Of a DNA stretch of 39,462 nucleotides, positions 2,830 to 24,250 are shown piece by piece. Origin of the DNA: a virus; the IMG/VR virus record IMGVR_UViG_3300025289_000060, positions 1 to 39,462 of that record, one strand, 5' to 3'. Each line of letters starts with the position of its first letter. Within the stretch, counting starts at the first letter, position 1. The translations under genes were made by a program, and so were the position numbers. A model generated the notes under the pieces. The model made no database searches. It was not told the origin of the DNA and saw only the letters and a list, made by a program, of their open reading frames with translations.

Positions 2830-3357
2830 ATGAGTTACCTTCGGCCCACCGATGATCCTCTTATCCAAAAGAGACATAAGAAGCAGAAGGGCGACCCTCA
2901 GGCTCATCTGGTCTACAGTGCTGAGAACAAGATCAAACCATATCACTGCTTTCGTTCGGAGAATGCTGCTCGGGCCTTCATTCGGGAGGTCGTTCATAGT
3001 CGTTGGTGGAAAGCCCATTTCCCTCATATCCAAGATGTCGCTATGGTAGTTCAGGACAGGGACAGGGGCTATGCAGATGCCATGCCAGGCTTCAAGGTTG
3101 GGGCCGTCCGACTTGATTGGACCTACCTCAGCCAAGATAACGCACTTCACGAACTGGCCCACACTATTGTTGAAGGTGGCAAGCCGAAGATTCGGCCTAA
3201 CGCCACCGTACATGGTAAGGAGTTCGCCGGAACCTACTTGGCATTGTTACGCAAGTTTACTACCCAAGAATACTATTTGTGCATGCGGGATTGTTTCGAG
3301 ACCGGTGGAGTAGAGTTCCTAGAACCTGATGTGGCCGAAGGCTTGTGGAGGAAGTGA
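2830..3357 (+). CDS. SprT-like zinc metallopeptidase
   Basis: 175 residues from ATG 2830; an earlier in-frame start at 2743 would overlap the membrane-peptide gene and is rejected. HELAH at residues 107-111 is the zinc-binding HExxH motif with E108 as catalytic base, and VHGKEF around 127-132 supplies the third His, the arrangement of the SprT/Spartan family and related phage peptidases. In cells such enzymes remove DNA-crosslinked proteins; in a phage the substrate is unknown. Length fits a minimal SprT domain. The stop is 1 base before the next start. Confidence 0.65.
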   Translation: MSYLRPTDDPLIQKRHKKQKGDPQAHLVYSAENKIKPYHCFRSENAARAFIREVVHSRWWKAHFPHIQDVAMVVQDRDRGYADAMPGFKVGAVRLDWTYLSQDNALHELAHTIVEGGKPKIRPNATVHGKEFAGTYLALLRKFTTQEYYLCMRDCFETGGVEFLEPDVAEGLWRK

Positions 3358-10320: not shown

Positions 10321-10662
10321 ATGAACGTGGAAGGGTTCGTACCAGATTACACACCGGGCGTCGATACAAAGTGTGATATGTGCTTCGGAACAGGGGAAGC
10401 ACAGACCTACGTCACGGAAGACGGCGAACAGATTTGGGGAACAACCGATGTCAATTGGGAACTACCGGAGGGTGCTAAGATCGCTGAGGTTCTTTGTAGA
10501 ACCTGTGGTGGGACGGGTATCATGCCAGAGACTTTGAAGCCCGGTTACTGGCAACAGCGGATTGAGGAGTGCAAAAAGGGCAACAACCCTCTAAACGTTC
10601 TCAAGATGGCCATCAACCCTCTAAACGTTCTCAGGATAGCCATCAAAGCCATCGTTGGTTAG
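10321..10662 (+). CDS. DnaJ-type zinc-finger protein, 113 aa
   Basis: AGGAGG upstream. Two CxxCxGTG units (CDMCFGTG near residues 19-26 and CRTCGGTG near 60-67) match the zinc-binding repeats of the DnaJ Cys-rich domain, without a J domain. Such stand-alone modules are frequent small phage proteins. The C-terminus ends with NPLNVLKMAI followed by NPLNVLRIAI, the product of a 30-base tandem duplication. Upstream of the RNA ligase gene by 11 bases. Confidence 0.7.
   Translation: MNVEGFVPDYTPGVDTKCDMCFGTGEAQTYVTEDGEQIWGTTDVNWELPEGAKIAEVLCRTCGGTGIMPETLKPGYWQQRIEECKKGNNPLNVLKMAINPLNVLRIAIKAIVG
10584..10643 (+). repeat. Two tandem 30-base repeats inside a gene
   Basis: 10584-10613 and 10614-10643 differ at only two positions and stay in frame, duplicating ten residues (NPLNVLKMAI / NPLNVLRIAI) at the C-terminus of the zinc-finger protein. 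Looks like a recent slippage or unequal-crossover event. Confidence 0.85.
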
Positions 10663-20956: not shown

Positions 20957-21385
20957 ATGAACAAAGCAGATGCCGAAGCACAGTATGATGGAATCACGAA
21001 GCTGCTGGCCGAGCGCCTGAAGAACCTCGACCGAGCCCGAAGGGATCAACTCAAGACCAAAATCTCCTTCGAGCGAGAGCAGGATGCCTTTGGTAAGACG
21101 GTGCGGGATCTGAAGATGACCTATGCCGACGACCCATCTATCCGTAGCCAGCCGGACCCCTCCACAGGCAAGCCCAACAAGGAATGGGCAGCTTGGCTGA
21201 TCGAGCGGGCCGTCGAGCGAGATCAGGAGTTCATCCAGGGGACGGGGCGCTTCTATGCCGTACAGGAGGGCTACTTTGGGGCCGAACTTGCCCTGCATCA
21301 GGCGGGCGAGGAACTCAACGCCGTCAAGGCCGAGATGTTGTTATTCGCTGCCTTGATGCGGTATCTTTCGACTCCAGAAGGATAA
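20957..21385 (+). CDS. Helical hypothetical protein, 142 aa
   Basis: ATG 20957 follows GGAGAG. Predominantly helical with charged heptads (residues 1-60, and 95-135), with a middle loop (DPSIRSQPDPSTGKPNKEW). Could be a coiled-coil partner of the recombination proteins. The stop TAA is followed after three bases by the first GGCNN array. Confidence 0.65.
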   Translation: MNKADAEAQYDGITKLLAERLKNLDRARRDQLKTKISFEREQDAFGKTVRDLKMTYADDPSIRSQPDPSTGKPNKEWAAWLIERAVERDQEFIQGTGRFYAVQEGYFGAELALHQAGEELNAVKAEMLLFAALMRYLSTPEG

Positions 21386-21388
21386 CAT

Positions 21389-21458
21389 GGCAGGGCGCGG
21401 CCCGGCAAGGTAGGGCAGGGCATGGCTCGGCCTGGCTTGGCGTGGCGAGGCAGGGTAC
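21389..21458 (+). repeat. GGCNN pentamer array 1, 14 units
   Basis: Reads as 14 uninterrupted five-base units, GGCAG GGCGC GGCCC GGCAA and so on, ending GGCAG GGTAC. Twelve units start GGC, two start GGT. The last two bases of each unit vary freely. It fills the gap between two genes almost exactly: it starts three bases after a stop codon and ends four bases before the next likely ATG. GG every five bases on the plus strand is also a two-tier G-quadruplex pattern. Confidence 0.95.
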
Positions 21459-21462
21459 AAGG

Positions 21463-22008
21463 ATGCTAGAAGTTCTTAGTCGTCTAAAGTTTGAAGATTC
21501 AAAGAAGATCGACTGGCTACCTGGGTCGCGAGTCAAGATGTTTATGGCGTTGGCTCCCGACATCAAAGCCTGGGCTGTTGGGATCGATCCCGGCAGGAAC
21601 TTTGGGATTGCGATCGCCACCAAGGGCTACGTTGTTGTCTATGATGGAAGCCTCCCACAGCAACCAGAAAAATGGAAGTATGGTGTCTTGGCGATCGATC
21701 TGGTCAAGCGCATCTTCTCGGGACCTCCCCAGAACTTCCAAGTGGGGATTGTTGAGGGTCCGGCGTTCAATGCCCGATATGGTCAAGTTTCGTTGGCCGA
21801 GGCGAGATTCGGATTCCTGTACGGACTGATCGAAGTTGGGGTCAAAGATGTTCGAGTAGCGGCCCCGGCTAGCATTCGAAAGGTCGTCTTGGGAGGAGGT
21901 CGATATCCGGTACCGTATGAAACTTGGCCCAGATTGTCCACAAATGGAACAGATGCGTTGCTAGCCCTAGGATTTGCCCTCTTGACAATGGACAAATCCG
22001 GCGTATAA
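21463..22008 (+). CDS. RuvC-like (RNase H fold) Holliday junction resolvase candidate
   Basis: 181 residues from ATG 21463, though the ribosome site there is poor and ATG 21538 is an alternative; the frame stays open through the upstream array, which I regard as non-coding. VGIDPGRNFGIAIA (39-52) supplies D42, IVEGPAF (96-102) supplies E98, and TNGTDALLALGFAL (160-173) supplies D164, the acidic triad of RuvC-type nucleases. Probably cuts branched DNA before packaging or during recombination. The stop codon TAA is part of the TATAAT box of the next promoter. Confidence 0.7.
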   Translation: MLEVLSRLKFEDSKKIDWLPGSRVKMFMALAPDIKAWAVGIDPGRNFGIAIATKGYVVVYDGSLPQQPEKWKYGVLAIDLVKRIFSGPPQNFQVGIVEGPAFNARYGQVSLAEARFGFLYGLIEVGVKDVRVAAPASIRKVVLGGGRYPVPYETWPRLSTNGTDALLALGFALLTMDKSGV

Positions 22009-22009
22009 T
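21982..22009 (+). promoter_or_regulatory. Perfect sigma70 consensus promoter
   Basis: TTGACA (21982-21987), 16-base spacer, TATAAT (22004-22009), both boxes perfect matches. Predicted start is near 22016, two bases before the first pentamer of array 2, so the transcript would have about 120 bases of GGCNN repeat at its 5' end before the phosphoesterase gene. The -10 box overlaps the upstream stop codon. Confidence 0.8.
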
Positions 22010-22017
22010 GGATTCAT

Positions 22018-22139
22018 GGCGCGGCTAGGCGCGGCTAGGCGAGGCAAGGCTGGGCAGGGCGAGGTACGTGGCGAGGCCAGGCAAGGCGAGGCAGGGCGTG
22101 GCGAGGCAAGGCGAGGCATGGCGGGGCGAGGCGAGGTAC
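22018..22139 (+). repeat. GGCNN pentamer array 2, 24 units in two blocks
   Basis: Block one, 22018-22067, has 10 units ending GGTAC; two bases GT; block two, 22070-22139, has 14 units ending GGTAC. All other units begin GGC. The phase shift of two bases happens only after GGTAC. The array lies between a perfect promoter and the metallophosphoesterase gene and forms most of the untranslated leader. The 14-unit block has the same length as array 1. Confidence 0.95.
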
Positions 22140-22167
22140 AGGGGTAGACTAACAACAAGGAGAGAAA

Positions 22168-22953
22168 ATGACCAAAAGGGTCTTGATTCTAAGCGATACG
22201 CACTGTGGGCACGAGGTTGGGCTGACACCGCCCAAATGGAATCCGCAATACCCAGAGTTTCCGGCCCTCCAGAAGATGTCGGACTATCGAGCCTACCTCT
22301 GGGACAAGTTCAAGTCAGAGTTGGACGAGTGGCGGCCCTTTGACGTTTGCATCGCCGACGGGGATATGATCGATGGTCGCGGTGAACGCATAGGTGGGAC
22401 AGAGGAAATCTTCGTCGACCGAGTACAGCAAGTCGAGATGGCAGCAGAAATCCTCGAAACCGTGAGGGCAAAGGAGTTGTATGTCGCTCGGGGTACGGAT
22501 TATCACGTCGGACCCTATGAGAACTTCGAGGACGGTATTGGTAAGTTGGTCGACGTAACGCGCACCGGAGATGTCCTGAACATCGACATCGCAGGTTTGA
22601 TGTTCAATGTGCGCCACCACGTTGGGGGTTCACAAGTACCCCACGGTAGAGCCACAGCGCTCCTCCGGGATTGGTCATGGAACATTATCTGGTCTTCAAT
22701 GCAGGAGTTTCCAAAGGCAGATGTGATTATCCGTGCCCATGTCCATTACCACCTGGCAGTAGATCAGCCCGGTTCGCTGGCGATGACCACGCCCGGACTC
22801 CAAGGCTACGGAACCCGTTATGGAGAACGCCGCCTGAGCGGCCTTATCCACTTTGGGTTCATTCTGTTCGATATCAATAGCAAGGAGGACTTTGCATGGA
22901 CGAAACGTATCTTCCCCTTCCCCAGACCCCCGGTCTCCGTATCCGAAGCATAA
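22168..22953 (+). CDS. Calcineurin-like metallophosphoesterase
   Basis: 261 residues, AAGGAG site upstream. Metal-binding motifs are SDTHCGH (9-15, D-x-H), DGDMIDG (64-70, GD), RGTDYH (108-113, in place of GNHD/E), RHH (149-151) and AHVHYH (190-195, GHxH-like). The fold hydrolyses phosphomonoesters or diesters, in some phages on nucleic acids. The GTDYH variation means substrate cannot be predicted. It is transcribed from the promoter at 21982 through array 2. Confidence 0.8.
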   Translation: MTKRVLILSDTHCGHEVGLTPPKWNPQYPEFPALQKMSDYRAYLWDKFKSELDEWRPFDVCIADGDMIDGRGERIGGTEEIFVDRVQQVEMAAEILETVRAKELYVARGTDYHVGPYENFEDGIGKLVDVTRTGDVLNIDIAGLMFNVRHHVGGSQVPHGRATALLRDWSWNIIWSSMQEFPKADVIIRAHVHYHLAVDQPGSLAMTTPGLQGYGTRYGERRLSGLIHFGFILFDINSKEDFAWTKRIFPFPRPPVSVSEA

Positions 22954-23312
22954 CGAAGACCGGATCAGAATTGCCATACTCTCTGGATAGCCTAGATGAG
23001 ATTATGGCAGCCGCCGCAATAGAAAAGAAGGAAAAGGAGGAGCACGATGTTGCAGGTCTTGAAAGTACGACTCTGTGGGGCGTCCCAGATGATTCTGCAC
23101 AACGGCCAAACAGCCAATCCCTTGAACAAGTTCGCCAAGCAACTGAAAGCCGTCAGCAGGAAGAAGAACAAGACGGAGGACGACATGGAGGAGCTGGCGA
23201 AGATCGAATTCTTGGCCGGCTGGTACCAGAATCCGGCGGGGGCGTACACACTCCCAGCCCACAACATCGAGGCAACGATGCTGGAGGGAGCAAAGAAGAA
23301 CAAGAACGGTAA
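22896..23312 (+). CDS. Possible overlapping small gene, 138 aa
   Basis: ATG 22896 has an AGGAGG site eight bases upstream, inside the phosphoesterase gene. The first 50 residues (MDETYLPLPQTPGLRIRS to EKKEKEEHDV) look protein-like; the rest overlaps the next gene in another frame for 266 bases and reads as a low-complexity polar sequence. It may be a real overprinted gene, a short protein whose tail is unselected, or an N-terminal part joined to the next gene by a shift at the A-rich 23021-23035 stretch. Confidence 0.35.
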   Translation: MDETYLPLPQTPGLRIRSITKTGSELPYSLDSLDEIMAAAAIEKKEKEEHDVAGLESTTLWGVPDDSAQRPNSQSLEQVRQATESRQQEEEQDGGRHGGAGEDRILGRLVPESGGGVHTPSPQHRGNDAGGSKEEQER

Positions 23313-23622
23313 GCTCATCCAGAGTGGGGCGTTCGTTGTCGATGACCCGATCCTAGTCTTTCCTGGATCGAATCTGAACCCAGAGGAGCTGTGGAAGCGG
23401 GGCGAGAATGCCCTGATGGTCTCCGTTCGAGTTCAGCGCAATCGAGTTATGAGAACTAGGCCGACCGTCCCTCAAGGATGGACAACGGAGGTGGAGATCA
23501 GGTTCGATCCCCAAATCATCGAACCCCCGGCGATTGTCCAGGCTCTTGAGGTTGCCGGTTTGGAGCGGGGCTTGGGGGATTGGCGACCTAAGTATGGTCG
23601 GTTTCTCGTAGAGCAAGTCTAG
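23047..23622 (+). CDS. Hypothetical protein, 191 aa, last gene of the plus block
   Basis: AAGGAGG upstream. Begins MLQVLKVRLCGASQMILHNGQTANPLNKFAK and ends GLGDWRPKYGRFLVEQV. The fold appears alpha/beta with strong conserved-looking pieces (LPAHNIEATMLEGAKK, DDPILVFPG, RVQRNRVMRTRPTVP), and the final GDWRP..GRF element is one I associate with an uncharacterised phage family. No catalytic motif. The stop codon overlaps the first GGTAC of array 3. Confidence 0.7.
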   Translation: MLQVLKVRLCGASQMILHNGQTANPLNKFAKQLKAVSRKKNKTEDDMEELAKIEFLAGWYQNPAGAYTLPAHNIEATMLEGAKKNKNGKLIQSGAFVVDDPILVFPGSNLNPEELWKRGENALMVSVRVQRNRVMRTRPTVPQGWTTEVEIRFDPQIIEPPAIVQALEVAGLERGLGDWRPKYGRFLVEQV

Positions 23623-23874
23623 GTACGCGGCCCGGCGCGGCAAGGCTCGGCAGGGCAGGGCATGGCGAGGCGAGGTACGTGGCAAGGTGCGGCGTGGCTT
23701 GGCTGGGCGCGGCTTGGCGAGGCAGGGCGAGGTACGAGGCGTGGCGTGGCTAGGCTTGGCCGGGAGAGGCTTGGCAAGGCCCGGCAGGGCGAGGCGAGGC
23801 GAGGTACGTGGCAAGGCTTGGCCTGGTGGGGCGTGGCTCGGCGAGGTGAGGCAAGGCTGGGCGAGGCAAGGTAA
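23622..23874 (+). repeat. GGCNN pentamer array 3, 49 units in four blocks
   Basis: A leading GGTAC (23622-23626), then blocks 23629-23678 (10 units), 23681-23735 (11), 23738-23807 (14) and 23810-23874 (13). The first three blocks end GGTAC, the last ends GGTAA. Blocks are separated by GC, GT, GA and GT. Five internal units deviate (GGTGC, GGAGA, GGTGG, GGTGA and the final GGTAA). The array begins on the last base of a stop codon and runs to six bases before the terminator hairpin, so it is the 3' untranslated end of the plus-strand unit. Confidence 0.95.
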
Positions 23875-23880
23875 ACAAAA

Positions 23881-23899
23881 GGCCCGAATGACTCGGGCC
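23881..23899 (-). terminator. Intrinsic terminator for the minus-strand unit
   Basis: GGCCCGA (23881-23887) pairs with TCGGGCC (23893-23899) around ATGAC. On the minus strand the hairpin is followed by TTTTGTTT, the U-rich tail of an intrinsic terminator. It would stop transcripts coming from the virion genes before array 3. Confidence 0.75.
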
Positions 23900-23912
23900 A
23901 CAATAGATGTGG

Positions 23913-23936
23913 AAGGGCGGCCCTAGAGCCGCCCTT
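23913..23936. terminator. Strong hairpin, probable bidirectional terminator
   Basis: AAGGGCGGC (23913-23921) pairs perfectly with GCCGCCCTT (23928-23936) over nine bases around CCTAGA. On the plus strand it is followed by CTTCGTT. It lies 5 bases from the stop of the minus-strand holin candidate, between the convergent units, and probably works with the neighbouring hairpin. Confidence 0.7.
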
Positions 23937-23941
23937 CTTCG

Positions 23942-24250
23942 TTACCCTTCGTTGATTTCGCTTGACCGAACCGAGATACCCATCCGCTCGGCCAGGGGCT
24001 TCACGGCATATCCATATCCGAGCGTAGCGGTCAGGATTGCCGAGATGGCCACGACAACGGCGTTGACGTAGACTTCAGACTCCGGGACGAACTGGATCAG
24101 GAACCACATGGCCGCAAAGCCAAGGGCTCCACCCAAGGCCCCAAGCCGAAGGTGCGTCTCTTGTTCAACCCCCAAAAACTTCAAACTCTGAACGAACAGA
24201 ATGACGAACGCGCCGATCTGAACACCCGCAAGAGCAATTGACAGATCCAT
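23942..24250 (-). CDS. Holin candidate, three membrane spans
   Basis: 102 residues with three hydrophobic helices (about 6-23, 36-54 and 61-83) and a charged C-terminus (ERMGISVRSSEINEG), the general layout of class I holins. Last gene of the virion block and preceded by its own promoter-like sequence. Holins form pores that release the lysin at the end of infection. The identified lysin is on the opposite strand 21 kb away, so the link is inference. Confidence 0.6.
   Translation of the reverse strand: MDLSIALAGVQIGAFVILFVQSLKFLGVEQETHLRLGALGGALGFAAMWFLIQFVPESEVYVNAVVVAISAILTATLGYGYAVKPLAERMGISVRSSEINEG

What the first reader, a model, noticed from the sequence alone, without database searches (positions are those of the whole stretch)
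21389..23874. Three arrays of a GGCNN pentamer (87 units) in consecutive gene gaps, with GGTAC block ends
Read directly: 21389-21458 (14 units), 22018-22139 (10+14) and 23622-23874 (1+10+11+14+13). 74 of 87 units are GGC plus two free bases; GGTAC occurs seven times, always as a block boundary, and within each array the phase shifts by two bases only after GGTAC. This two-level design (fixed triplet, variable pair, punctuation unit) fits neither a simple microsatellite nor a CRISPR. I know of no described phage element like it. Possible roles: multi-site protein binding, replication origin, recombination or cassette-exchange sites, packaging or RNA structure.
Basis: partly seen in the sequence, partly recalled or inferred. 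Interest (0 to 1): 0.92.

Follow-up and report, generated by a model that had tools for sequence, protein, structure and literature searches.

The report
Phage VIPR guide-RNA arrays (GGY/NN repeats)
The odd GGCNN repeats are almost certainly the guide-RNA genes of a VIPR system, a CRISPR-like weapon first described in 2026 that phages carry to switch off competing phages; this is a new, slightly unusual member of that known kind.

Summary
The element has been described since April 2026 as VIPR (PMC13142463): a small RAMP protein (Vipr) plus guide RNAs made of 9-16 GGY/NN repeats.

Contigs picked only by the repeat's DNA pattern carry one protein family next to the arrays: 101 of 136 array loci against 1 of 71 control loci. 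Arrays lie on the vipr strand 381 to 7. The window has that gene at 23047-23622. It matches PDB 36pp 'SUSP1 Vipr' (E 5.6e-26), and its AlphaFold model (pLDDT 97) resembles Csm3/Cas7.

The seven blocks of 10-14 units are best read as seven guides whose NN pairs specify gapped DNA targets. A perfect sigma-70 promoter precedes array 2; strong hairpins follow array 3.

Less standard: no structured tails between blocks, no known accessory gene, and a metallophosphoesterase gene in its place, which also adjoins distant viprs in three other contigs. Target searches were inconclusive. Verdict: new member of a known kind.

The parts
21389..21458 (+). Array 1: 14 GGY-NN units, one predicted guide (B1), ending GGTAC
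   Evidence: sequence
21463..22008 (+). ORF of 181 aa between arrays 1 and 2; a GIDPG motif hints at a RuvC-like nuclease, not confirmed
   Evidence: motif only; Pfam and PDB searches gave no support; homologue only in L131 and weakly L050
21982..22009 (+). Sigma-70 promoter TTGACA-16-TATAAT, ending 8 bases before array 2
   Evidence: 12 of 12 consensus bases; consensus match only
22018..22139 (+). Array 2: blocks B2a (22018-22067, 10 units) and B2b (22070-22139, 14 units), two predicted guides
   Evidence: sequence
22168..22953 (+). Metallophosphoesterase gene, candidate accessory (vap) gene
   Evidence: PF00149 found with its homologues, best 9.9e-6, window itself 0.0023; homologues adjoin vipr in L059, L085, L116
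22896..23312 (+). Overlapping ORF of 138 aa with a good ribosome-binding site; status unclear
   Evidence: ORF list; no family match
23047..23622 (+). vipr gene: RAMP-family protein of 191 aa
   Evidence: PDB 36pp SUSP1 Vipr, E 5.6e-26; phrog_4652; AlphaFold pLDDT 97.4; Foldseek to Csm3 RAMPs
23622..23874 (+). Array 3: leading GGTAC, then blocks B3a 23629-23678, B3b 23681-23735, B3c 23738-23807, B3d 23810-23874 (10, 11, 14, 13 units), four predicted guides
   Evidence: sequence
23881..23943 (+). Two strong hairpins directly after array 3, probable transcript end
   Evidence: RNA fold -40.5 kcal/mol, z -5.3

Best explanation
The arrays are the guide-RNA (vrRNA) genes of a phage VIPR system. Shown here: seven blocks of 10-14 GGY-NN units on the gene strand, beside a gene for a Vipr-family RAMP protein. 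Inferred from the published system: Vipr subunits line up on the transcript, one per five-base unit; the GGY bases do not pair with the target; the NN pairs read double-stranded DNA as NNxNNx with one skipped base. The complex then sits on a gene of a competing phage or satellite and represses it. My own proposal, untested: GGTAC plus two bases is the end signal of one guide. It breaks the five-base register, so a filament laid on one guide cannot run into the next.
For: DNA-only selection of arrays recovers the Vipr family in 101 of 136 loci, median distance 18 bp, 381 of 388 arrays on its strand, against 1 of 71 control loci. The window's own protein matches PDB 36pp 'SUSP1 Vipr' and is predicted with pLDDT 97.4 to have a Csm3/Cas7 RAMP fold. 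Block lengths 10-14 lie in the published range 9-16, and GGY fixed with NN hypervariable matches the published vrRNA. Perfect promoter before array 2, hairpins after array 3. The Vipr tree places the window in a clade with wV8. Blocks elsewhere are also delimited by locus-constant, register-breaking punctuation.
Against: No convincing target was found for six guides. No structured tail of the type II kind lies between blocks, and neither common accessory family is present. Expression is not shown. Arrays also occur in 32 contigs where no Vipr was detected, although several of those are simple repeats or fragments.
Confidence: 0.92

Rival explanations
1. A decayed VIPR locus: the arrays and vipr descend from a VIPR system, but guides are no longer produced, having lost tails and accessory gene.
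For: No tail and no vap1-like gene; no target found.
Against: vipr is intact with all nearly invariant residues in a confident model; seven blocks keep the repeat strictly; the promoter before array 2 is perfect; an independent 99.87% identical contig has identical arrays.
Confidence: 0.05
2. DNA-level binding sites: an iteron-like origin, partition or packaging site bound by a phage protein every half helical turn.
For: Five-base spacing is about half a turn; the region lies near recombination genes.
Against: Strand is fixed to the vipr gene, 381 to 7; the linked protein is an RNA-binding RAMP; the variable pairs are the published guide positions.
Confidence: 0.02
3. A TRAP-like leader: a ring protein binds the triplets with two-base spacers in nascent RNA and controls the neighbouring genes.
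For: Triplet plus two free bases repeated about 11 times resembles TRAP sites (own knowledge).
Against: The linked protein is a RAMP, not TRAP; array 3 follows the last gene of its strand, so it has nothing downstream to control; pairs are hypervariable between phages.
Confidence: 0.01

Closest known systems
VIPR of Escherichia phage SUSP1 (type II; PMC13142463, PDB 36pp) and its near twin in phage wV8
   Same: Vipr homologue at about 33% identity across its length, same clade; GGY/NN repeats of 9-16 units; arrays on both sides of vipr in the same orientation
   Different: Window has no structured tail between blocks, mostly GGC instead of GGT, contiguous blocks with GGTAC+2, no vap1 homologue, and a metallophosphoesterase gene directly upstream
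VIPR types with staggered arrays and overlapping vrRNAs (PMC13142463, fig. S18)
   Same: Blocks follow each other without tails, with a register shift, as in the window
   Different: The supplement could not be read, so it is unknown whether GGTAC arrays are this class
Class 1 CRISPR-Cas effectors (Csm3/Cas7)
   Same: RAMP fold of the protein; a protein filament on a guide RNA
   Different: No repeat-spacer array; the guide is noncontiguous pairs in a fixed scaffold; a single small protein
TRAP binding sites of trp leaders
   Same: Triplets spaced by two free bases
   Different: Different protein, variable pairs carry information; resemblance from memory only

Membership tests
VIPR | Vipr protein (RAMP family, about 20 kD) encoded at the locus | tested here: met
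   23047-23622, PDB 36pp SUSP1 Vipr E 5.6e-26, AlphaFold and Foldseek
VIPR | Arrays of 9-16 GGY-NN tandem units with fixed GGY and hypervariable NN | tested here: met
   seven blocks of 14, 10, 14, 10, 11, 14, 13 units; 86 of 87 GGY
VIPR | Arrays in gaps flanking vipr, on its strand | tested here: met
   arrays upstream and directly downstream of vipr, all +; general pattern
VIPR | Repeat tract followed by an invariant, structured 3' tail (as in type II) | tested here: inconclusive
   no such tail between blocks; only GGTAC plus two bases, and hairpins after array 3; other VIPR types are said to have overlapping vrRNAs
VIPR | Vipr-accessory (vap) gene | tested here: inconclusive
   neither of the two common downstream families present; metallophosphoesterase is a candidate
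VIPR | Arrays transcribed and bound by Vipr | not testable with these tools
   only indirect: promoter and hairpins
VIPR | Targets matched by the one-nucleotide skip rule | tested here: inconclusive
   six guides searched, no hit beyond chance
CRISPR-Cas | Direct repeats separating unique spacers | tested here: not met
   five-base period with two variable bases and no spacers
CRISPR-Cas | Cas1/Cas2 or a multi-subunit cas operon nearby | tested here: not met
   none among flanking proteins in Pfam and PHROGs

The most novel reading that the evidence does not exclude
This locus represents an undescribed VIPR variant in which a metallophosphoesterase, possibly a nuclease, replaces the usual accessory protein and adds target destruction to repression, and in which guides are delimited by a register-breaking GGTAC unit instead of a structured tail. 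In support, the phosphoesterase adjoins vipr in two very distant Vipr clades (window; L059, L085, L116), and GGTAC ends blocks in two distant clades (window; L032, L129 and kin).
Probability: 0.25. Interest if true: 0.6.

Novelty: new member of a known kind. Interest (0 to 1): 0.42.

Why it matters
VIPR is a recently reported RNA-guided DNA-recognition system, proposed as ancestral to CRISPR. This locus adds a seven-guide member in an uncultivated phage. It also suggests two testable additions: a phosphoesterase accessory gene, and punctuation that works by breaking the five-base register. The survey here shows that a plain DNA pattern, (GGYNN)n, finds VIPR loci in viral contigs efficiently and exposes contigs that carry array-like repeats without a detectable Vipr.

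Tried and rejected
Literature searches for 'pentanucleotide repeat' and 'GGCNN' found nothing relevant; the link to VIPR came from the PDB match.

Targets: six guides as eight-unit one-skip patterns in viral contigs gave only chance-like hits. L311, one of two B3a hits, matches the first 8 units with the skip base at the wobble position of an unannotated open frame at the contig end, and carries its own Vipr. But one Vipr locus in 71 hits is near any plausible base rate, so I do not claim it. Comparing all collected guides with all fetched DNA for skips 0-3 gave no clear targets: the top matches involve simple or coding repeats, the rest look like chance.

Rfam and ARAGORN found nothing in the loci searched. 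The AlphaFold model of the phosphoesterase was poor (pLDDT 58), though Foldseek still pointed to metallophosphoesterases. RuvC for 21463-22008 rests on a motif I recognised; PDB and Pfam searches did not support it. Apparent vap1 hits in the window were array translations.

Microsatellite, CRISPR, iteron and TRAP readings were considered and set aside. Genome-contig hits of the pattern were largely from GC-rich genomes and I took most to be coding repeats; only 3 of 120 carry a Vipr.

Full report
1. Observation. Inside arrays 2 and 3 the register moves by +2 after GGTAC (GGTAC+GN). In 50 order-2 Markov simulations the longest chain in the window was 4 units. Two refinements: GGTAC is itself a GGY-NN unit, and the last one or two pairs before it are nearly constant (GA), so the free pairs are the earlier ones. 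The last block ends GGTAA, followed at once by strong hairpins.

2. The pattern elsewhere. The GGTAC boundary form hits 18. Most hits are multi-block arrays. The punctuation differs between phages but is largely constant within one: GGCA (a 4-mer), GGTAC+2, TCAG, CGCA, CCTCAG, GGAACGC. Of 232 short gaps between blocks, 220 are not a multiple of five. The counting method absorbs single in-register substitutions, so in-register gaps are undercounted; the per-locus constancy (for example 11 of 11 gaps of +7 in L123) does not depend on that. Named phages also carry arrays: Mycobacterium Saal, Donkeykong, Brocalys and LittleE, Gordonia UmaThurman, cyanophage Cy-LDV1.

3. The protein partner. The named phages have the same unknown gene family near the array (phrog_4652). 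A profile from these and the window, iterated, finds the family in 101 of 136 array loci that were picked by DNA alone. The median distance is 18 bp, and 381 of 388 arrays are on the gene's strand. As a control, 71 viral loci fetched for unrelated patterns contain one. Searching the PDB with the family profile returned 36pp, 'SUSP1 Vipr protein', E 1.9e-46; the window's own protein gives 5.6e-26 over residues 3-189. AlphaFold is very confident (pLDDT 97.4), and the best structural matches are Csm3-type RAMPs.

4. What it is. PMC13142463 (preprint, April/June 2026) describes VIPR: Vipr, a RAMP proposed to be older than CRISPR, with guide RNAs of 9-16 GGY/NN repeats. The NN pairs read double-stranded DNA with one base skipped between pairs. 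The complex represses transcription, and natural targets are competing phages and satellites. The window fits the protein, repeat unit, repeat number, hypervariability and location. Its Vipr groups with wV8, which is nearly identical to SUSP1 Vipr, in a 24-member clade (support 94/92), though on a long branch.

5. How this one probably works. Shown: seven blocks, intact vipr with a good ribosome-binding site, a 12-of-12 sigma-70 promoter ending 8 bases before array 2, and hairpins after array 3. Inferred from the published system: seven guides (B1, B2a, B2b, B3a-d) loaded by Vipr and directed at DNA by their NN pairs. My own proposal: GGTAC plus two bases marks the end of a guide by breaking the five-base register that neighbouring Vipr subunits need; the published type II guides use a structured tail instead.

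6. What is unusual. Two families sit directly downstream of vipr elsewhere: phrog_15946 in 30 of 31 loci and phrog_5926 in 23 of 23 that also have a vipr. The latter includes wV8 gp95 and so is presumably vap1. The window has neither. Directly upstream is a metallophosphoesterase gene (PF00149). Homologues 36-41% identical adjoin vipr and arrays in L059, L085 and L116, whose Viprs belong to a very distant clade. Recurrence with distant Viprs suggests a functional link, but n is small, and I could not check whether this is one of the preprint's named vap genes.

7. Targets. Six guides were searched as one-skip patterns in viral contigs. Hits numbered 0-34, with no clear extension beyond the searched units. 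There is no self-target. The target question is open.

8. Verdict. Real, non-random and functional-looking, but a member of a system already described. Interest lies in the variant features and in contigs with arrays but no detectable Vipr.

Noticed in passing
L017, L083, L120, L111, L113, L074 and other loci, whole records searched: 32 of 35 array-bearing records without a Vipr in the fetched stretch also showed none in the whole record, among them contigs of 35-105 kb. Some are simple repeats or fragments, but others look like real GGY-NN arrays without their own Vipr (satellite-like solo guides, or a Vipr too diverged to see).
   Followed up: partly
L349 (Gordonia phage MakoManhole) about 1650-1692 and twice within 2880-3240: The segment between its arrays, GCTCGGATGGTCGCAGGTGGGGTTCGACTCCCCACCCGAGC, resembles a tRNA T-arm plus acceptor stem. 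If it is the guide's tail, tRNA-processing enzymes might cut it. ARAGORN and Rfam call nothing there.
   Followed up: partly
L267 (Mycobacterium phage LittleE) 4004-5775: vipr, its accessory gene and arrays lie as a cassette on the strand opposite to the tail genes around it. Annotated gp35 lies over an array on the opposite strand, and Donkeykong gp48 (L270) also covers an array. GGY-NN arrays contain almost no stop codons, so such gene calls are probably false.
   Followed up: partly
L059 10336-11763, L085 10243-11664, L116 1089-2557: Metallophosphoesterase genes directly beside vipr and arrays in a Vipr clade far from the window's.
   Followed up: yes
window 22985-22997: The only differences from the 99.87% identical contig L131 across 21371-23890 are 8 substitutions packed into 13 bases, inside ORF 22896-23312 and just before vipr.
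   Followed up: no
L311 6094-6116 and 792-1589: A one-skip match to the first 8 units of guide B3a, at wobble phase, in a contig with its own Vipr; may be chance.
   Followed up: partly
window 10584-10646: A 30-base direct repeat in 2.1 copies (93% match) across the overlap of two ORFs.
   Followed up: no
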